The position numbers and the translations under genes are program-made. The notes beneath the pieces were generated by a model. It ran no database searches. It was not told the origin of the DNA and was given only the letters and a program-made list of their open reading frames with translations. A stretch of 64,000 bases of DNA from Acarospora socialis (Eukaryota > Ascomycota > Lecanoromycetes > Acarosporales > Acarosporaceae): positions 992,001-1,056,000 of the forward strand of contig JAMYGW020000005.1 in assembly GCA_025617375.2 (NCBI GenBank). The letters are read 5' to 3'. Below, in pieces: positions 849-61,727 of this stretch (positions are counted from its first letter, which is position 1; each line of letters opens with the position of its first letter).

Positions 849-2384
849 TTAAAACATGTGACACTCCTCCTGAGCCCGCTGAAAAGCTCCGGAAAAGAAG
901 TCTTGCATAGCAAAATAATGGAAGAGAATGCCACCCAAGACGGCCAGATGCCATATGTTATGGCTCCCACCAATGTAGTCGAACCAACCAGGGCACCACC
1001 TCTCAGGTATCTGCGCCGCATAGATGAGTGCCCCAACCAGATAGACAGACACGCTCTTCATAACCGGGGCGTAGAAGTAGTACGACCATTCGGGTCCTCG
1101 ACTCAGGTTGAGCTGAATGACTGGTGCGAACCCCGTCGCGCCAAGCGCTACATAGAAGGCGACACGAGCCCAGTTCATATCTGCGCGGTTGAAGGTTGGA
1201 TGCCACGGAAGGATGACGCCACCAATACCGAGTGTTGCTGTGCACACGATATATGTCCACCGGCTGACAGGTTCACAGTAGAAGGCAGTGTACTCCGTTG
1301 TCATGATCGACGCTGCGATGAGAAGAGATATTCCCGTATAATCCACGCACGCGAATCGCTCCATGAGGTTTTGCTCGGCGATACTATTCATCGTGTGCCA
1401 TAGCGTACTGCAGACGAGGCATTTGCAAGCCGCAAAGAAGAACACCGCCGCGATGAAGACGTCGGCTTTGGTGGATAAGGAAAAGTTGACGGATGTCGGA
1501 TAGAAGTAAAAGGCGATGGACAAGACGATAATCAAGCCTATGGCATGAGACCAGATGTTGACAAGTTCGTTGGAAACATTGAACGCCGAGCGGACGCAAT
1601 CGATCTTTGACTCGGTGAATCGATAGCCTTTGACGATATGTGGATTGACTCGCCATGGATGAGGGAGGTCTTCATATCGGATCAAGCCATGCTCTTGTGC
1701 TCTTTTGACGGCGTTCTCAATACTTTCCGTCAGTGTCTCTTTCGCCCTTCGTGCCACCTCAAAGCCCTCGTCAACGACTTCCTTTGCTTTCTCTATCCCT
1801 TCATCCACCCGTCGCCTCCCTTTATCTATAACTCCCGAAAGTCCGCTATCCCGTATATCATGTGCTTTGGCTTCAAAATCGGCCAGTATCCCCTCCATCA
1901 GCTTCATACTTGCTTGAGCCTTGGCTTCTAAGCTTTCCCTAGTCGTTAAAACGTCGTTGTATCGTCCTTCTAAGGTCTCCACCAGAACCTTCGCCCTGCG
2001 TCTTCCGGCGCCGATGAGCTCTCCGGAAACATGTGAGCATGAGTCCCGCACAGCCTCGAGAGTTGTGTAAGCTCGACTGATACCAGCATCCAGGCGTAGG
2101 TTACCATAGTCCTCCAGCCATGCGAGTCGTCGTTCCAGCTCGGAAAGGAAAAGGTCCACCTAATCCTCGTGAGCACTGTTACACGGTTATCGCTCGTTAA
2201 GGTAACATACTCTAAGATAGGTAGCATCCGCATCCAAATCACTGGAATGTCTCCGCAGTGAGTGATATGAAGAGTGTCGACGGCGTGGGTTGAGGGGTAT
2301 CCGTTCAGGCGAGTGTCCTGAACTGCGCCCCGTTGGTCTGTCGCCGTAGGACTCCACGGTTAAAGACGGTGATGTACAAGCCAT
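849..2384 (-). CDS. IZH3: Izh3-like PAQR/haemolysin-III family membrane protein
   Basis: This is a seven-transmembrane protein of the PAQR (adiponectin receptor/Izh) family, which in yeast affects zinc and sterol homeostasis. The model has two exons: 2384-2211 (ATG at 2384, 58 codons, Ser/Arg-rich) and 2159-849, joined across a 51 bp intron (2160-2210, GTATGT...TTAG), giving 494 residues. The first roughly 250 residues are hydrophilic, helical and Lys/Glu-rich, the long N-terminal extension typical of Izh3 rather than the shorter Izh1/2/4. The C-terminal half holds about seven hydrophobic segments. PAQR motifs are visible: an early SxLWH element (VCSTLWH) and a late HNIWHLAVLGG..FH segment that supply the metal-site histidines. 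Exon 2 has no ATG of its own at the junction (GTG), which supports the upstream exon. Family assignment is firm; the zinc or sterol role is inferred from yeast. Confidence 0.88.
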
Positions 2385-3177
2385 GGAGAACAAAGTGATG
2401 TTTCGCTTTCGGGGCGACGATATATATGACGACTATGAGTGGTGGTGGCTGACGGTGACGTATGGGGGATTTTGTTGGGCGGACCGATGCGGCCAAGGTA
2501 AGTCGCTCCAAAACGCCTTTCTTATTATATTATAAAGAAAGATTCGAAACCTTGCGCAAATATCTAGCGATATGTACAAAGACCTCACGCAATCGAGTCA
2601 ATCGTCGTCAAGTAGTGGGGACGTTGATGTCGAATCCATAGTCGATAAGGTGAGAGGCAGAAGCAGAAGCGGAGAGTTTGGGTTGACCCTACATTAGGAC
2701 AGAGAGGTATCCTGCGAGGGGCGACTCGCTAATCTCTCAAATGTGCTGCTTTTGGTTTAGCGCCCACGTTAGCTTGCATCTAGCTAGATGTTCTAGATCT
2801 CTGTGCCCAGCAACCTCGGTGAAACTCTCCTTAGGTACGGAACAAGGCCGGTGGAGAACAGTGACAGAAGCACATTCAACCCGTGTTCTCTGATTGTATT
2901 TACATACGACATTTAAGCTACACCAGGCGACGTGATGGTTAGACCATCAAGGTGTAATGTGTTCTATAAACCAGCTTATATTCAATCATTCAAAATAGCA
3001 GAGATCTACCTTGTAAGCCCTTTGCCGCATATACCATGTACCAATGAAGCCTGAATGCCAGCCAGACCCATCCACACCATGCAAAATCCTAGATCATTAG
3101 ATCCAAAGGCGGGTATCGTGACAAGCATTTATAAACGCCATAAGAATGTGGACCCTTAAGATATAAATCCGTCCAAT
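2385..3177. other. intergenic: Izh3 upstream region and palF 3' side
   Basis: No convincing coding region. The part next to 2384 should be the Izh3 promoter and 5' UTR; the part next to 3178 should be the palF 3' UTR. Nothing repetitive stands out. Confidence 0.5.
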
Positions 3178-5585
3178 TTACCTCTCGTACCGCGGCAATG
3201 ACTCTCTAGCAGTCGAGATGATACCTGATCCGGTATCATGATGAAGATAACTTGGAGATTGTTGATTATATTCTTCGTCTTCTGGTAGTGCTGGAGCACT
3301 TGGCTCCAGGTTTGTACGCTCCTGTGCGCCATTTCTCGCGCTGGGAGCGTACAGTCCTTCATCGTCCGGGAAGTCTTCTGGTGCACTTGCCTCTAACTGG
3401 AGCCTGCGCCGCTCAAGTTCCTGCTTATCCTCACCGGTATAAGATCCACCCCCTTCAGTGATGCCATTATCGACCGATGGTATGATGGTCTCCGCCGAGC
3501 GGGTAGATGGTCTACCGTGAGCATAAGCGTAGGTGCTAGATTCGCCACTTTCTCCAACGCGAATTGTGTTGTCGACTGCAAAGGTGCCTAGTTGTCCGGG
3601 CGCTGTGGGCGTATGATCAGTGTTCAAAGAGTTGACCTCTGCGGGTGGCTGACTGGGAAGGAGCCGCTCTTCGGCCCTCCGAATCCGGGTCTTTTCATCC
3701 ATGGCATCTTCGTTCTCGACAACCGGTGGAGGAACAGCTGCCGTGGGAGAGTGTAGGATGGGGTGGGGCTGAAGGGTCTCAGTTAACCCCCCAGTACCAC
3801 TATATGACGGGAAAAAATGGACGCCGTCTTGCGGTACGCATGTCTGCCAATCCTCCGGGTCGTCAGGTAATCTCACGTCGGTTGATTCTGGCGGGATGAA
3901 ACTTTCTTGGTACTCTGCCTGCTGCGTCTGAGGGCCCCGGGTATTCCGTTTTCTCCCACTGTCTCTGGTGCCAACAATGACTTCAAACAAGCATGCAGCA
4001 ACACTTCTTTCTCGTCGAATTTGATCCGTGTCAAGTATACTGCCGCTAAATGTGGACACAATTTCTCTTGTGCCATTTTCGTCTCGCTGTAGAATGTGGC
4101 TGTTATTTTGAGAATCATTGAGGACACTCGACCTACTCAGGCGAGGAAGGAGATTATCCAGTCCGGCCTGGAGCTTGCCGCGTAGGTCGATAATAACCTC
4201 GACGTAGTACTTGAAGCTGATCATCGCTCCAGGTACAGATGATATGGTAGGAAAAGAGTCTTCAGGCACCCTGACGGATGTCTTCACAAACGCAGTCAGG
4301 CTTCGAGGATCCACTATGAGTGGTGCAAAGGTTTGTGACAAGTCTTTGCGGAAGACTCCACTCGACACGGCTGACGATAAGGATAGGCCAGTCAAACCAG
4401 ACTTCGACTTTGGGTAGTAGTCATGATTGGATCTGACTACGCCTTTGCCCTTACCAGTTGGCTCGGCTGAGATCGCAGGATGGGTATCAATGCGGCCCTG
4501 ACGGTACAGTGTGACAATAATGCCTTCCAAGCTCTTGATAGGTTTAGTGTGATTTATAGATATTCTTACTGGTATAACGTCGCCAGGAAGACAGCCGGCT
4601 CGGACAAGCTCAATTGTCGCCGTGATGGTCTTGTCTGCCTGCGACGTCGTGATACTTTGGGAATCGCTGTCTTTGGCGGACAAGGATCTAGGTCCGGCCT
4701 TGGAGCTTCGGGTACTGTTGCTGACAGCACTTGGAGTGCTTGCCTCACTCGGAGCAGGACTGTGAACCGGTCGGTCGAGAGGCTGGGCTTCGCCTCGTGG
4801 AACGCTCTCGGCACTCGCGGTAGGACCGCTGCTCGACCGGGTTAATGGAGGCCTCGTTGAAAGTCGTTTTAAATCTTTGGGCTTGATCTTCTTCTCTCGT
4901 GAGATTGGATTCAAGGTGATCATCCGTTGCTTCGGATGGGACAATGGTGCGACATCGACTGTCTGCACTAGGTAAACTTTGCGATCGCATGAGGACGTTG
5001 GGGATATAGTTGTCGGTCGGGTTATCGTTGAGGTGATTATATATGATATTGTTCCTCTTTCGAACTACATCGACTGTTGAGTTGCTATCACTCCAATGAC
5101 AAGCTGTCGGCACTTACATCGATACTGCTGGGCACTCCCTTTGAAGGGAAATCAAGCTCGAAGTTGAACTCGTAGCGCCCGACATCCAGCCGGCCCTCTC
5201 CACACAGGGTAATTTCATCCTCAAACAACGATGCGTATCCATGTTTAAGTTGCTCATTTCCCTTCTTCATTCGGCCGGTACCCATAAAACCGCTATCAGG
5301 ACTAATGCCATCGCCCGGCGCATTCGCCGTGTTGAAAACCCTGACGTGACCATGAAGGCGTACGACCAGATGCGTAACCCTCACCGGTTTGACGACCGTC
5401 AACACCACGGCACCTTTCACCACGTCTCCTGGCGCGTACTGACGATGGGGCTCGTCCGGCCTTATGTAGAACTCCGATAGGTTTCGAGTCCGAGTTGCGA
5501 GCGGGGAAGCCAATCTCGAGAGGATCGCCCGACTCCTCGAGGAGATGGAGGACGACACGTCATTTGATGTTGGATTCATTAGCAT
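3178..5585 (-). CDS. palF: pH-response arrestin PalF/Rim8
   Basis: PalF/Rim8 is the arrestin-like adaptor that couples the plasma-membrane pH sensor PalH/Rim21 to ESCRT components and so to proteolytic activation of PacC/Rim101. Exon 1 is 5585-5118 and exon 2 is 5064-3178, separated by a 53 bp intron (GTAAGT...GTAG), giving about 784 residues. Arrestin-N is in exon 1 and continues into exon 2 (YAPGDVVKGAVVLTV, VRVTHLVVRLHGHVRVF, then FERGTISYIITSTITRPTT just after the junction). Arrestin-C runs from about residue 300 to 530 (IELVRAGCLPGDVIPV). The rest is a long disordered Ser/Pro/Glu tail ending SLPRYER, as I remember PalF proteins ending. The frame is open upstream of 5585 but has no earlier ATG; the arrestin fold is complete from here, so the first ATG (5585) is taken, with a second at 5579. 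Confidence 0.92.
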
Positions 5586-28155: not shown

Positions 28156-30153
28156 TCAAGCACGAGCGGCCACCATCTTCTTCAGTCTCGGTGATCGACG
28201 CACTGCCCTTCTTACCGCTCGCACTTCAGCGGCTCTACTTCTCCCACCCATCTGTCTCCCAACCGGTATCTCGACAGCGGCAACCTTCCTCCACCTCGCA
28301 AACGCGTTTTGTATCCCCGCTTGACCATTGTCATCATCTCCAACATCCGGCATCTCCACATCCTGATCTTCCGGCCGGCCGCCCTGGTTCCCACCGTCAT
28401 TGTCGTCGTCATCATTATCCTCTTCCTCACTCTCTTCCTCACTCTCTTCCTCACTCTCTTCCTCACTCTCTTCCTCACTCTCTTCCTCATCCTCGCTCTC
28501 GCTCTCTTCCTCTTCCTCATCATCGCTCTCTTCCTCGTCCTCGTCCGCATTGGGATTATGTCTGGCAGCGTATGCGGCCTCTTCGGCCGCAAGTTCATTT
28601 TCGGCAGCAAAATCCACATGTTGGCCCAGGTCCTCCGCAAAATCGATCATCTGTTCCCACCCCTCCCTATCCATCCACTGCCGCCAAGCCCGCTGCAAGT
28701 ACTCCGGCAGCTGATTGGCTGGGGTGCCATCGGACATCATGTCGAGCGCCTCCTCGTGCCAGTGCGTTTCCTCATACTGCGGCGGGTCGTTGTCTTGATC
28801 GAAGTCGTACAGGAGCCACCAGTGTTCGAAGTGAACTTCGCGGTTCCGCGGGTGGACGGGCCGGCGCAGGTTCGCGTTTTGCGGATTGGTGTCCCAGGTG
28901 GCGAGGATGTTGTCGTAGTAGCGGTCCTGCTCGTCGGCGTAGTCGAGCAGGCGTTGCTGCTCGCGTAGCGCCTTGCGCCGCGCCGGCGCCGGGAACACGT
29001 GCTGCTGCTCAAGCAGGGTGTAGTCGTCGTGCAAGTGTGCCTGGATCATCCGGAAGGCGTGATCCTGCTCGGCATCGGGATCGAAGCCGACGTTGTAGTT
29101 GCCCTCCTCGATGTCGATGTTCAGCTTGGCGTTGAGACGGCCGGCGTCTTTCCGGCACATGGGGCATGGGAAGGAAAATTTGTTTTGCCCCAGTACATCC
29201 CATGCCTGAAAGGCGCAAGTGCTGTGGATCCAGTGCAGGCCGCAAAATTGTAACATGACGGTATCGCCCTCGCCAAAGTCGGCCTCGGTCCCGTCCTCCT
29301 CGTTGTCATGGCGGCCACACATGGCGGCGCATTTCTCTTCCCGGATCTTGGAAATTCCAATCGGCTGCACGTCCAAGGCGCGTTCTATGCGAGGATTCTC
29401 GAAGAGGGCGCCGACATCGCTGATGGTCTGCACATAGACCTGACTGATTTCGTCATTGAACACCAGATAAAGCTGCTTCCACGGCCGCCGAAAGCCGTGT
29501 TGCCGCAGCTGGCGAATCCACCATCCGTCTCTTTCACAATCGTGAATGCCGCAGATTTCGCCAAGCGGATCCTGCCAATCCAATTGATCTCGGTCAAATC
29601 GTTTTTCCAGAAGAACATCTTCCACATGAGTGCCACGGAGAGGGTCCTCGAAACGAGTCTCAGCAACCAGAAGTTCCGCCAGGATCTCGCAGTCAGCGTC
29701 CATCAGCGGGATCATGTCATTCGCCGAGTTGCGTAATCCGAGTGCGGCAGCCTGCCGATCGTAAAGCTTCCGAAAAGGTCGTATGACGAGAGACTGTTTG
29801 GTTTCTGCGTCGATAATGGGAAGGGACCATAATGCCTTCTGCAATCGATCATTTGCAGCGGCATGATTATGCACTTGGGCGAGCTGCCACCTGGCCACGT
29901 TCTGGTAGTGGCATATAGATAACCATCGCTTGAACCAATTATAAGTGTCCGTCCATACCGCAGAGTGCGCGAGATTGCTTCCATCGACTGCGGGCACGCG
30001 GTCAAGCCATTCCTGATCTTCACATAAGAATCGAAAGATGCGGATAGTCGACGAATTAACGGCCTGATGGTTTGCAAAGTCTTCTTCGCGACCATGATAT
30101 CTCAATCGGTCCAGTTCATATTGAATCCCGGCTTGATAATTCATGGCCTCCAT
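28156..30153 (-). CDS. RING-like zinc-finger protein with acidic repeat tail
   Basis: I do not recognise a named ortholog. Single exon, 665 residues. The N-terminal roughly 270 residues are globular and unassigned. From about residue 281 a RING-like zinc-binding pattern is visible: CAAMCGRHD, then after a long acidic insert FCGLHWIHSTCAFQAW and FPCPMCRKD, so C..C....C-x2-H-x2-H-x2-C.....C-x2-C. This suggests a possible E3 ubiquitin ligase, though the spacing of the first pair (C-x3-C) is unusual. The C-terminal part is acidic: a DEDEEESDDEEEEESESEDE run leads into perfect SEEE repeats encoded by a 12 bp tandem array, then a DDDDND segment and a basic end (RAVRRSPRLKKMVAARA). Acidic tract plus basic end suggests a nuclear protein; that is inference. 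Confidence 0.8.
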   Translation of the reverse strand: MEAMNYQAGIQYELDRLRYHGREEDFANHQAVNSSTIRIFRFLCEDQEWLDRVPAVDGSNLAHSAVWTDTYNWFKRWLSICHYQNVARWQLAQVHNHAAANDRLQKALWSLPIIDAETKQSLVIRPFRKLYDRQAAALGLRNSANDMIPLMDADCEILAELLVAETRFEDPLRGTHVEDVLLEKRFDRDQLDWQDPLGEICGIHDCERDGWWIRQLRQHGFRRPWKQLYLVFNDEISQVYVQTISDVGALFENPRIERALDVQPIGISKIREEKCAAMCGRHDNEEDGTEADFGEGDTVMLQFCGLHWIHSTCAFQAWDVLGQNKFSFPCPMCRKDAGRLNAKLNIDIEEGNYNVGFDPDAEQDHAFRMIQAHLHDDYTLLEQQHVFPAPARRKALREQQRLLDYADEQDRYYDNILATWDTNPQNANLRRPVHPRNREVHFEHWWLLYDFDQDNDPPQYEETHWHEEALDMMSDGTPANQLPEYLQRAWRQWMDREGWEQMIDFAEDLGQHVDFAAENELAAEEAAYAARHNPNADEDEEESDDEEEEESESEDEEESEEESEEESEEESEEESEEEDNDDDDNDGGNQGGRPEDQDVEMPDVGDDDNGQAGIQNAFARWRKVAAVEIPVGRQMGGRSRAAEVRAVRRAVRRSPRLKKMVAARA
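28420..28489. repeat. 12 bp coding tandem repeat (SEEE units)
   Basis: About six near-perfect copies of CTCTTCCTCACT (plus-strand orientation) encode the (S/E)EEE array of the RING-like protein on the minus strand. The unit is a multiple of three, so copy-number change keeps the frame. Confidence 0.9.
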
Positions 30154-57621: not shown

Positions 57622-58258
57622 ATGGCCGCTTCCCTCCAATACGTCAAGCTTGCCCAAGCTCTGCCCTCACGACTGATAAGGTTCTTCGCGCGATATCCCC
57701 CGCCAGCCTTAAAATCCACCTCGCACGGCTCGACGCCGGTCACATCCCCGTCCGCAACTGCCTCCACCGCACCAACCCCAACCTCCAACAACACTACCTC
57801 TACATCGAATGATGCCCTTGGGACAGACTCGACGGTCGGCGATGCGTCAAACCCCTTCCAATCACAACGCCACCCAGCAACAGGCAACTGGCACGACCCA
57901 ATCTTCTCACTCCGACGACAAGCAGATCTCGTGAAGCTAGCGCGACAACACGGCGTCGAAGGACTCTTGCCGTTCACAGTGAAAGGGACGGAGGAGAGAT
58001 TACGGCGGAGAGAAGAGAACGGGCTGCGGGTCAAGGGCACCGGCGTGGGGCAGAAAGTGAAGGGGAAGGCTTGGGAGCGGACGTTGAAGGGGCGGCTGGA
58101 GAGGAGACGGCAGGCGATGCTGGAGATGCCGAAGATGATTCAGACCTGGAAGGAGGTGAGTGCGCTATGTGTGAGCGGTGGTTTGTGGGTGGTGCTGATT
58201 GGGGTTGGTGTTTGTGTAGCGGGGCCACGGAAGGGGGTGGAAGAAGTTTCCGAAATGA
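57622..58258 (+). CDS. MRPL25: mitochondrial large-subunit ribosomal protein mL59 (MrpL25)
   Basis: A fungal-specific protein of the mitochondrial large ribosomal subunit. Exon 1 is 57622-58155 and exon 2 is 58220-58258, with a 64 bp intron (GTGAGT...TGTGTAG), giving 190 residues. The start MAASLQYVKLAQALPSRLIRFFARYPPP is the family opening. A Ser/Thr/Pro-rich insert (about 35-75) is longer than in yeast. The conserved core follows: NPFQSQRHPATGNWHDPIFSLRRQADLVKLARQHGVEGLLP, then a strongly basic rRNA-binding part. The 13-codon last exon encodes RGHGRGWKKFPK, the expected C-terminus; without splicing the frame runs on into unrelated sequence to 58584. The transposon-like element starts 261 bp after the stop. 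Confidence 0.87.
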
Positions 58259-58510
58259 TGCGGTGGTCGATTGTGAGGGTCTTTTGCTGTGGCATTGTAT
58301 CGGCGGTTTCATGTGACCGCCTGTCGGATCGGCATGGCGGAGAGGATGCAGGCTGTCGTATGGGAGTTTGTAGCGGCGACTTGGGTGAGGCGTTGCTACT
58401 TGGTGGACTCAGTATCAGCCTGGAGACGGGCAGTGACGAGAGGACTGCAGTAATCTGTCTCCCTCCCAGTCTTGTATATGAAGTGGAGTGCTGCACTGGT
58501 CGTCTAGTCA

Positions 58511-58519
58511 GTTATCGAT
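58511..58519 (+). repeat. 9 bp target-site duplication, left copy
   Basis: GTTATCGAT, directly repeated at 58963-58971, with the two copies exactly abutting inverted CGGCAAA/TTTGCCG ends. Confidence 0.85.
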
Positions 58520-58962
58520 CGGCAAATTACTGTCGTCTCCCCCTCAGAGTGCATTTTACGTCCTCATCTCCCCCATTTAAATAGCATTACTTTCATCTCC
58601 CCCACATCATCTCCTCCTACTCATAGACACCTGAACCAACGCCTGTATAAATTTATAGATATGAATTGAGGCATGTGTTTAGGTTTGTTATTTAGATGTC
58701 TGTTTAGGCATGAATTTAGGCATGGATTTAGGCATGATTTAGGCGTGGATCTAGGCATGAGTTTAGGCATAGCTTTAGGCGTCGGTTTAGGCATGAGTTT
58801 GGGCGTCGATTTAGGCGTCGATTTAGGTGTTGGTATACGCATGAGTTAGGTGGGATGCCCTTAGATTTAGGTCTCTAGGTAGGGGGAGACGATAATGGGG
58901 GAGACGATGGTAATTATGAATAAATGGTAAATTCACTCTTTGGGGGGTGACATAGTTTGCCG
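58520..58962. mobile_element. non-autonomous MITE-like DNA transposon, 443 bp
   Basis: The ends are inverted: CGGCAAA at 58520-58526 and TTTGCCG at 58956-58962. After this the arms keep matching imperfectly for about 40 bp (ACTGTC / CTATGTC, C-rich run, AGAGTG, ATTT, AC). Both arms also contain repeated TC(A/G)TCTCCCCC blocks, as CTCCCCC on the left and as GGGGGAG on the right. The element is bounded by the perfect 9 bp direct repeat GTTATCGAT. It encodes no protein. The centre is a TTTAGGC-type minisatellite. A 9 bp duplication is typical of Mutator-like elements, but no autonomous partner is in the window, so the superfamily is inferred. It ends about 100 bp before the Prp28 ATG. Confidence 0.75.
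58676..58830. repeat. TTTAGGC(A/G)TNNN minisatellite inside the element
   Basis: About twelve degenerate units of 11-12 bp, each with TTTAGGCATG or TTTAGGCGTC. The minus strand happens to be open through it (Pro-Lys-Ser-Thr repeats), which I take as a by-product of the 12 bp period, not a gene. Confidence 0.85.
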
Positions 58963-58971
58963 GTTATCGAT
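58963..58971 (+). repeat. 9 bp target-site duplication, right copy
   Basis: GTTATCGAT, identical to 58511-58519. Confidence 0.85.
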
Positions 58972-59061: not shown

Positions 59062-61727
59062 ATGATCTTCAACAGGACCATCCCCTACCCCAAGATGAAC
59101 GGAACACTGATGAATGGTGATATTGCTCTGGCACCACCTCCGCCTCCACCACCAGGTCCTGATTTTTTGGAGCGACCTTCATCACCCCCTCCACCTCCCC
59201 CTGATTCTCTAGCGCCGCCACCTCCCCCAGAAGATCTGCCGCCTCCTCCTCCACCATCACAGGCCAACGATATCCCACCTCCGCCTCCGGTCGAGAGTAA
59301 AAAGAGGAAAGCGGGATGGGGCAATCATTCGGAACAACGAAAGCCGCTCAGTGTGGAGGAGATACTGCGAAAGAAGAGGGAAGCTGATGCGGCAGCAGCA
59401 AAAGTAAGCTTCTCTTGAAACCATAAATTGCTCGACGATCTCATGTTCACCCTTGTGTTATTATCTAGATATACTCCAGCTACTGACTGTTACGTTTGTG
59501 TCTAGCCTAAGTTCTTGTCAAAAGCTCAGCGGGAGAAGCTGGCCCTTGAAAAGCGGGCAAAAGAGGTCGAAGAAGCAAAGCAAAAGGCCCAGACTGAAAA
59601 GGCCTTGGCTCCGCCGAGTCAGAATGGTCACGCTTATCCATCACGTCCTCAAGCCTCTGTGAATGGAGAGATGCGTCATGCTCAGCCTTCCCATGCGGCG
59701 AATGGCGTGAACGGGGATCGAAAACCAGCAATACCGACAGGTCCTCGGGCTCTAAGGCAAGGTGAGGTACCGACCGGACCTGCGGCGATGCGATCAGCAC
59801 TGCCTAACAAAGGATACGATATGGCCCCTCCTCCACCTCCGAAGCCTTTAGTGAATGGTTCTTCTGTCAGTAAGCACGACAAGCGACCAATTTCCGAGGA
59901 AGCTCAAGCTGCGCTCATTCGACAACGGTATATGGGCGCAGATCAAAACCAGTCAACCTTCTCTGCTAAGAAGAAGAGGCGCCGGACAACGGAGAGGAAA
60001 TTTAACTTCGAGTGGAATACCGAGGAAGACACGAGCCCCGACTATAATCCTCTCTACCAGGCGCGTGCGGAAGCCAACTTCTACGGTCGAGGCCGGCTCG
60101 GCGGCTTTGCCGAAGACCTAACTGACGGGATTGCGCAAAAATACGCCAAGGCTTTACAGGAACGAGATCCTGAGGCCGGCAACGCCAGGGCAAGGGAGAT
60201 GATGGAAATGGAGCGAAGGAGGAAGGAAGAGGGCGGCCGGAATTCGCTCGACAAGCACTGGAGTGAAAAGAAACTCGAGCACATGCGGGAAAGGGACTGG
60301 AGAATATTCAAAGAAGATTTCAATATCAGCACCAAGGGTGGAGCTATACCGAATCCTATGAGGTCTTGGGCGGAATCGGGCCTACCCAAACGCCTTTTGG
60401 ACGTGGTAGACCAGGTAGGGTACACTGAACCCTCCGCTGTTCAGCGTGCTGCCATCCCAATCGCGCTGCAATCGCGTGATCTCATTGGTGTTGCTGTTAC
60501 TGGCTCTGGGAAAACGGCAGCATTTCTACTTCCGCTACTTGTTTATATTTCCGAGCTTCCCGTACTCAACGAGATGACGAAGAACGACGGACCGTATGCG
60601 ATCATTCTAGCACCAACCCGTGAACTGGCTCAGCAAATCGAAATTGAAGCGAGGAAATTCGCCACCCCTTTAGGATTCACATGTGTCAGTATCGTTGGTG
60701 GTCATTCGCTCGAAGAACAAGCCTACAACCTACGAGATGGAGCCGAGATTATCATCGCTACTCCGGGTCGTCTGGTTGACTGTATTGAGCGTAGAGTACT
60801 TGTCCTAGGGCAGTGTTGCTACGTTATCATGGATGAAGCGGATCGGATGATCGATCTTGGATTCGAAGAGCCTGTGAACAAGATTCTCGACGCGCTTCCG
60901 GTTGCGAATATGAAACCAGATTCCGAAGAGGCCGAAGACGCGGTTGTGATGAGCCAGCACCTTGGTGGCAAAGACCGTTACAGACAGACGATGATGTACA
61001 CGGCCACCATGCCTGCAGCCGTCGAACGAATCGCCAGGAAATATTTACGCAGACCTGCAATCGTGACCATAGGCAACGTTGGTGAAGCGGTCGAGACGGT
61101 TGAGCAGCGCGTCGAATTCATTGCTGGGGAAGATAAGAGAAAGAAACGTCTTGCTGAATTACTGGCATCCCGAGAGTTCCAGCCTCCTATTATCGTCTTT
61201 GTCAATATCAAGCGCAACTGCGATGCCGTTGCACGAGATATCAAACACATGGGCTTTTCAGCGGCTACTCTACACGGAAGCAAAACTCAAGAGCAAAGAG
61301 AAGCTGCCTTAGCTTCGGTCCGGAACGGCAGCACCGACGTGTTGGTCGCTACGGACCTTGCAGGTAGAGGTATCGACGTACCGGACGTCAGCTTGGTGGT
61401 GAATTTCAACATGGCGACGAACATCGAGAGCTACACCCATCGTATTGGTCGTACCGGTCGTGCAGGAAAGAGCGGTGTTGCGGTTACCTTCCTTGGCAAT
61501 GAAGATGCCGATGTCATGTACGTTCCCCCCGCTCCCAACCGTATTGACATATAGCTAACAACTTCATTAGGTATGATCTAAAGCAGATGTTGATGAAATC
61601 ATCCATCTCGAGAGTCCCAGAGGAGCTGCGTAAGCATGAGGCTGCGCAGCAGAAGTCGCAGAAGGGCGGTGGGCAGAAGAAGATTGAGGATAGTAGCGGA
61701 TTTGCTGGGAAAGGTGGTTGGCAATGA
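59062..61727 (+). CDS. PRP28: pre-mRNA splicing DEAD-box helicase Prp28
   Basis: Prp28 (human U5-100K) is the ATPase that exchanges U1 for U6 at the 5' splice site before spliceosome activation. Three exons, 59062-59403, 59506-61517 and 61571-61727, with introns of 102 and 53 bp, give about 836 residues. The N-terminus is Pro-rich (poly-Pro runs from about residue 24 to 80), then KKRKAGWGNHSEQRKPLSVEEILRKK. Helicase motifs are complete: the Q-motif region (GYTEPSAVQRAAIP), motif I AVTGSGKT near 442, PTRELAQQ, TPGRL, DEAD near 555, motif III TAT (YTATMP; the usual SAT is varied), VATDLAGRGIDVPDV and HRIGRTGRAG near 758. The last exon gives YDLKQMLMKSSISRVPEELRKHEAAQ and ends GKGGWQ. A start at 59095 (MNGTLMNGD) is equally possible. 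Confidence 0.93.

What the first reader, a model, noticed from the sequence alone, without database searches (positions are those of the whole stretch)
58511..58971. Complete small transposon with 9 bp target duplication next to Prp28
The sequence shows CGGCAAA/TTTGCCG inverted ends, about 40 bp of imperfect inverted arm homology with shared C5/G5 blocks, and a perfect direct repeat GTTATCGAT immediately outside both ends. That combination is what a cut-and-paste insertion leaves. Inside is a TTTAGGC minisatellite and no coding capacity. A 9 bp duplication points to Mutator-like elements, but the end sequence is not one I recognise, so this may be an undescribed non-autonomous family.
Basis: partly seen in the sequence, partly recalled or inferred. 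Interest (0 to 1): 0.8.

Follow-up and report, generated by a model that had tools for sequence, protein, structure and literature searches.

The report
Short Mutator-like transposon beside Prp28
A 443-base "jumping gene" fragment without a transposase of its own sits just upstream of a splicing gene in a fungus related to lichen formers; it belongs to a varied Mutator-like family, and the long relatives examined have been wrecked by an unusual pattern of C-to-T mutation.

Summary
Window 58520-58962 (443 bp) has CGGCAAA/TTTGCCG ends, gapped inverted arms of 116 and 97 nt, a 12-bp TTTAGGC-type array, no long reading frame and a perfect 9-bp duplication GTTATCGAT. It belongs to a diverse family in this genome (Prp28 is 93% identical to Pleopsidium flavum, a lichen fungus). 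Of 25 end pairs picked without using their flanks, 8 have an exact 9-bp duplication and 3 have 1-2 mismatches; none has an exact duplication of 6, 7, 8, 10 or 11 bp. One 9.4-kb relative with a 9-bp duplication holds a degraded MULE transposase domain; its right arm matches a minisatellite-bearing relative at 86/96. "Non-autonomous Mutator-like element" is well supported, and the kind is known. The window's own end occurs once in the genome. The empty site could not be tested. The by-product is less expected: the long elements examined have lost nearly all CpG and CpC but kept CpA and CpT (51 AT-rich windows from 8 loci: CpG o/e 0.004, CpC 0.057). That looks like RIP with a target other than the usual CpA, which the standard indices miss. 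Five short elements counted are spared.

The parts
58511..58519 (.). left target-site duplication GTTATCGAT
   Evidence: only two copies in the window
58520..58635 (+). left inverted arm: CGGCAAATTACTGTC, then spaced TCRTCTCCCCC-type blocks (putative transposase binding sites, inferred)
58642..58852 (+). 12-bp minisatellite region, unit TTTAGGCRTGRG-like; the regular part is 58703-58827
58866..58962 (-). right inverted arm with GGGGGAGACGA blocks, ending TTTGCCG
58963..58971 (.). right target-site duplication GTTATCGAT
57622..58258 (+). neighbour upstream: mitochondrial ribosomal protein mL59 gene (end at 58258 assumes a GT-AG intron that I read by eye)
   Evidence: PF18126, E 8e-46
59095..61554 (+). 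neighbour downstream: Prp28/DDX23 helicase gene; its likely ATG (59095, read by eye) starts 133 bases after the element's last base

Best explanation
The feature is a complete non-autonomous Mutator-like element (MULE). Shown: matching inverted arms, a 9-bp duplication of the target, no long reading frame, and a genome-wide set of related elements with the same terminal signature and the same duplication length, one of which encodes a MULE transposase domain. Inferred: a MULE transposase made elsewhere bound the spaced TC-rich/CCCC blocks in the arms, cut at CGGC, and inserted the element between mL59 and Prp28 with a staggered 9-bp cut that was filled in. The internal TTTAGGC array is filler that grew by slippage or unequal exchange and sits in the place of the transposase gene. 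The two MULE-domain copies found are dead by C-to-T hypermutation; small copies survive because they are short, or because they lie in gene space.
For: 9-bp duplication and arms. Family: 8 of 25 end pairs with exact 9-bp duplications, 2 with one mismatch, 1 with two; exact duplications of 6, 7, 8, 10 or 11 bp: 0. Crossing the flanks of different pairs gave 2 exact matches of 600 and none with 1-2 mismatches; the listing shows two sets of pairs that share a flank (L005, L047), which accounts for the 2. MULE PF10551 over its cut-off at C1:54147-54425 and C3:3010154-3010435 (C1 copy again). The C1 copy has TTAAAATAT on both sides, and its right arm matches minisatellite elements L002 at 86/96 and L047 at 85/97. 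Short copies share the first and last stretches of a 3520-bp element (L068), itself flanked by TTGTTGATT.
Against: The window's end pattern occurs once. Its two arms are only 70/110 alike, and its left arm is about 65% like the nearest subfamily (L014 78/118, L005 74/117), so it is old or an orphan, and no transposase copy with its own arms was seen. Good arm pairs without a duplication also exist (L070, L072, L080: 7, 4 and 9 mismatches). The 3520-bp L068 gave no match to the MULE piece. 20 of 38 core places had no end hit within 1.5 kb. The relaxed listing also held 4 rows with a one-mismatch duplication that I take to be chance (two in L061, one in L085, one inside the C1 stretch).
Confidence: 0.9

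Rival explanations
1. A Foldback-type element in the strict sense: long inverted arms built of tandem repeats, moved by a MULE or another transposase.
For: Some relatives carry the minisatellite in both orientations, as inverted arrays (L003; L043 and L005). Tm1 of root-knot nematodes has 9-bp duplications and tandem-repeat arms (PMC3169594, passages).
Against: The window copy has the array on one strand only (11 TTTAGG, 0 CCTAAA), and its arms are not made of the array.
Confidence: 0.25
2. A member of another superfamily with 8-9 bp duplications (recalled: Merlin, hAT, P) that only resembles MULEs.
For: Duplication length alone does not settle the superfamily, and the window copy has no transposase.
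Against: Exact duplications at 9 bp and none at 8 or 10 among the end pairs; MULE domain inside an element whose right arm matches short copies at 86/96.
Confidence: 0.05
3. No transposon: a minisatellite with chance flanking repeats, spread by gene conversion or recombination.
For: The core recurs without a recognised end within 1.5 kb at 20 of 38 places.
Against: Arm similarity exceeds all 2000 shuffles; exact 9-bp duplications at unrelated sites.
Confidence: 0.03

Closest known systems
Tm1 (Mutator/Foldback family of root-knot nematodes, PMC3169594; passages read)
   Same: 9-bp duplications, composite inverted ends, small non-coding copies beside transposase-bearing ones, ~14-bp tandem repeats in the arms, an end motif starting with CGG
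   Different: Nematode; its repeats form the arms themselves. Here the 12-bp array lies inside conventional arms and its unit is a different sequence.
DTM_Hades, a DNA transposon of the lichen fungus Cladonia rangiformis (PMC12542154; passages read; reading the code DTM as Mutator is recalled)
   Same: Small (~730 bp), found among genes in a lichen fungus, mostly escapes RIP
   Different: Its ends and interior were not available to compare; the passages give no duplication length (the terms 'target site' and 'terminal inverted' do not occur).
Fungal MULEs of the Hop, Mutyl and Phantom-Ca groups, and the Rehavkus and aphid Phantom MULEs with minisatellites (review PMC6446971; passages of its table)
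   Same: 9 or 9-10 bp duplications and TIRs in ascomycetes (Phantom-Ca, Mutyl); minisatellites noted for Rehavkus and aphid Phantom
   Different: None of the fungal rows that I saw notes a minisatellite. The clade of the degraded transposase was not resolved (one search found nothing).

Membership tests
Mutator-like elements (MULE superfamily) | target-site duplication of 8-11 bp, mostly 9 | tested here: met
   GTTATCGAT at both ends; 8 of 25 end pairs exact at 9 bp and 0 at 6, 7, 8, 10 or 11 bp
Mutator-like elements (MULE superfamily) | terminal inverted repeats | tested here: met
   arms of 116 and 97 nt, score 53 against a shuffle maximum of 35
Mutator-like elements (MULE superfamily) | MULE-domain transposase in an element with the same ends | tested here: inconclusive
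   Met for the C1 copy and the L002/L047 subfamily; for the window's own ends only through a chain of related subfamilies
Mutator-like elements (MULE superfamily) | mobilised by a MULE transposase | not testable with these tools
   needs an experiment
MITE | short, without coding capacity, inverted ends, duplication | tested here: met
   443 bp; longest frame from an ATG 73 aa
MITE | many near-identical copies | tested here: not met
   38 places share only a diverged core; best other match to the window element 77% over 179 of its 461 query bases
Foldback elements | long inverted arms made of tandem repeats | tested here: not met
   array on one strand only in the window copy; inverted arrays seen in some relatives
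RIP as in Neurospora, acting on the long relatives | C-to-T change mainly at CpA, giving TpA/ApT above 1.15 and (CpA+TpG)/(ApC+GpT) at or below 0.75 | tested here: not met
   0.71 and 1.54 in the 51 most AT-rich windows; thresholds from PMC7882544 (passages)
RIP as in Neurospora, acting on the long relatives | transition-only damage confined to repeats | tested here: met
   330 of 337 differences between two MULE copies are transitions and 50 of 50 between the two LTRs of one insertion; CpG and CpC return at or within about 100 bp inside the element ends
RIP as in Neurospora, acting on the long relatives | RID/DIM-2 type cytosine methyltransferase present | not tested
   the PF00145 search did not complete (last try)

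The most novel reading that the evidence does not exclude
This fungus has a RIP-like genome defence whose preferred cytosine target is CpG and CpC (C before G or C) instead of CpA. It has wiped both dinucleotides out of the long transposons examined, including the MULE-domain copies of this family, while leaving short minisatellite-bearing MULEs untouched; surveys built on CpA indices would score such DNA as free of RIP.
Probability: 0.55. Interest if true: 0.72.

Novelty: new member of a known kind. Interest (0 to 1): 0.5.

Why it matters
The element gives a sequence-defined MULE family for a fungus related to lichen formers, with ends, duplication length and a dead transposase source in one genome, so activity and insertion near promoters become testable. 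The by-product may matter more. A kingdom-wide survey says RIP-like defences share a CpA preference (PMC12543289, passages). A CpG+CpC loss confined to repeats would mean that the target of the mutating enzyme can change, and that such RIP is missed by the usual indices.

Tried and rejected
Looked for a second copy of the window's own 24-bp end at up to 3 mismatches: none. Took the ORF 57622-58584 that enters the element for coding capacity of the element: rejected, it is the mL59 frame reading on. Looked for a MULE domain in the 3520-bp element L068 by tblastn with the C1 transposase piece: no match. Looked for protein relatives of that piece: 956 candidates, none at E <= 0.001; the tool only considers proteins of 0.55-1.75 times the query length, so full-length transposases were probably out of reach. 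A literal paper search for TTTAGGC was useless (1,647 papers, 25 listed). Preference for insertion 5' of genes: ORFs beside 15 elements were listed (for four of the 15 one or both ends were set by eye), and several face the element with their 5' side (window/Prp28, L002, L005, L006), but no random-site control was made, so no claim. The empty-site search, a search for more copies of the MULE, a search for RID/DIM-2-type methyltransferases (PF00145) and a second end pattern were sent but did not complete.

Full report
What is there. The interval is a 443-bp element, 58520-58962, with CGGCAAA and TTTGCCG at its ends and GTTATCGAT immediately outside both. The 9-mer occurs nowhere else in the window. 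The arms contain repeated TCRTCTCCCCC-type blocks. The middle is a 12-bp array, 58703-58827 in its regular part. The longest frame from an ATG inside is 73 aa; the one ORF of at least 120 aa that enters the element belongs to mL59.

Where it sits. Upstream is the mitochondrial ribosomal protein mL59 gene, downstream the Prp28/DDX23 helicase gene, both on the + strand. By my reading of the sequence the Prp28 start codon at 59095 begins 133 bases after the element. The genome is 31.1 Mb in 38 contigs and unnamed. Prp28 is 93% identical to that of Pleopsidium flavum, and most other named hits among the 120 listed of 7,987 are lichen fungi as far as I recall their names. The placement rests on this one protein.

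The family. Searching the genome with the element and with one relative (L005) finds the core at 38 places in all, a lower bound. Reading five relatives showed elements with inverted ends of other but related sequence. An end consensus written from them, CGGCRAATNACTNNNRTCNACCCC, has 80 matches at up to 3 mismatches, against 11 for the reversed pattern; they fall in 68 places. Since the pattern was made from members, these match by construction in part. 18 of the 38 core places have such an end within 1.5 kb; the other 20 are truncated, have further diverged ends, or are only related arrays.

The duplication test. I took 59 stretches (58 loci plus one stretch made of two overlapping loci) and paired ends by similarity of end and arm, without using the flanks. 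That gave 25 pairs, some of them plainly false or alternative pairs within one locus. Eight have an exact 9-bp duplication (window, L005, L017, L043, L045, L047, L068, C1), two have one mismatch (L031, L071), one has two (L020), and 14 have four or more, among them three with good family ends (L070, L072, L080). Exact duplications of 6, 7, 8, 10 or 11 bp: none. Crossing left and right flanks of different pairs gave 2 exact matches of 600, accounted for by pairs that share a flank, and none with 1-2 mismatches. With looser ends, one search lists 15 rows: those ten, a further exact case (L074), and four one-mismatch rows that I take to be chance. The eight exact duplications are 75% A+T, in a window of 47% A+T; the sample is too small to claim a preference.

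The transposase link. The MULE model PF10551 rings twice in the genome, at C3:3010154-3010435 and C1:54147-54425, both over the cut-off and both broken by stops. The C1 copy lies between CGGCGAATATCTAAGATCTACCCA and CAGCAAATATCTAAGATCTACCCA (read inward from each end), 9407 bp in all, with TTAAAATAT on both sides. Inside it a 352-bp direct repeat pair (86% alike) flanked by GAGAA marks a nested LTR-type insertion, so the MULE itself is about 3.2 kb (9407 less 6218 less 5). The read-through piece of 409 codons has 25 stops and still scores E 6.8e-9 to MULE. The right arm of this element matches the minisatellite-bearing element L002 at 86/96 and L047 at 85/97; its left arm matches them less well (77/97 and 74/100). 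The window element is tied to them through the L005 group, whose arms its left arm matches at about 65%, and through the shared core (77% over 179 nt with L002). That is why I rate membership of the family high, but not the claim that this very transposase moved it.

Structure shared by the family. Each of 11 elements tabulated has at least one TTTAGG or CCTAAA, L068 only one. Over 38 loci, 107 units at exact 12-bp spacing give the consensus TTTAGGCGTGAG, the first six letters being fixed by the search. In the window copy all 11 are on one strand; some other copies carry both strands as inverted arrays, the layout of Foldback elements. Five short copies (L070, L071, L080, L082, L087) share with the 3520-bp L068 its first ~100-184 bp and last ~140 bp at 79-89% identity, which is what deletion derivatives of a longer element would look like.

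An unexpected pattern. The long elements examined are extremely AT-rich and contain almost no CpG and CpC. In L061 the observed/expected values are 0.00 and 0.01, with CpA 1.53 and CpT 1.18; in the 64-kb window the four lie between 0.94 and 1.08. Over 218 kb in 47 stretches, the 51 windows of 500 bp under 33% GC, from 8 loci, give CpG 0.004, CpC 0.057, CpA 1.51 and CpT 1.24; 11 windows of 33-38% GC give 0.27, 0.78, 1.28 and 1.23; 56 of 38-45% give 0.62, 1.01, 1.17 and 1.10; 307 of 45% or more give 0.91, 0.96, 1.09 and 1.05. So CpG goes first and CpC follows. These loci were fetched because they hold hits of this family, so this is no even sample of the genome. Two MULE copies differ by 330 transitions among 337 substitutions, and the two LTRs of one nested insertion by 50 transitions of 50; one of those LTRs still has 12 CpC. 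The borders lie at the elements: in the C1 copy CpC falls from 9 per 100 bp just outside the left end to 4 and 1 inside, while at the right end the last 100 bp inside still hold 13, and the ends of L068 are also spared.

Reading of it. This is RIP-like in repeat targeting and in being transitions, but not in target. The usual indices give 0.71 and 1.54, where RIP calls need more than 1.15 and at most 0.75. Points against an absolute preference: of the C/T differences between the two MULE copies with an equal neighbour, 132 are before T, 113 before A and 11 before C. I read these as slower, later changes after CpG and CpC were exhausted. Deamination of methylated cytosines is not excluded. Five short elements counted are spared; the window copy has 15 CpG and 60 CpC/GpG.

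Literature. Passages of RIPCAL name CpA, CpG, and CpG with CpA as preferred targets in different fungi, and also report depletion of CpC and CpG along with CpA in Stagonospora nodorum repeats (PMC2621366). In Rhizoctonia solani the authors stress CpG, but their table gives CpC changes the shortest spacing of the four (214 bp, against 370 for CpG; PMC4014442, passages). Changes at CpC are therefore not unheard of; what I did not meet is near-complete CpG and CpC loss with CpA kept. A kingdom-wide survey reports a shared CpA preference (PMC12543289, passages). The searches behind this are (20 of 26 papers listed; 9 of 9; 11 of 11; 15 of 266; 15 of 22), of which I saw titles and abstract starts, with passages of five papers on RIP and no supplements; the claim of newness is weak. 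For the element, (9 papers; 13; 6) brought up Tm1 and the MULE review and, in titles and abstract starts, no fungal family with these ends; repeat databases could not be searched.

Verdict. As a transposon it is a new family of a known kind. Its wider interest is the contrast between spared short copies and long relatives stripped of CpG and CpC.

Noticed in passing
L061 1-9901, L062 1-5922, L069 917-6001, L068 ~1200-4300, L077: Near-total loss of CpG and CpC with CpA and CpT kept, and nearly transition-only differences between copies: RIP-like hypermutation with an unusual target.
   Followed up: partly
L069 1384 to L062 3201 (C1:46383-52600): LTR-type element (352-bp LTRs 86% alike, GAGAA duplication) nested in the MULE-bearing element.
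   Followed up: yes
L068 1027-4546: 3520-bp element with matching ends and TTGTTGATT duplication; no match to the MULE piece, interior unidentified; a tandem stretch of about 18 bp period (by eye) near 3880-4070.
   Followed up: partly
L007 about 1690-1768: Long TG microsatellite inside a relative of the minisatellite element.
   Followed up: no
window 28420-28550: 12-bp tandem array CTCTTCCTCACT, 9.8 copies, of another sequence than the element's array.
   Followed up: no
L002, L005, L006 and the window: These elements lie within a few hundred bases upstream of gene-like ORFs that run away from them; no control was made.
   Followed up: partly
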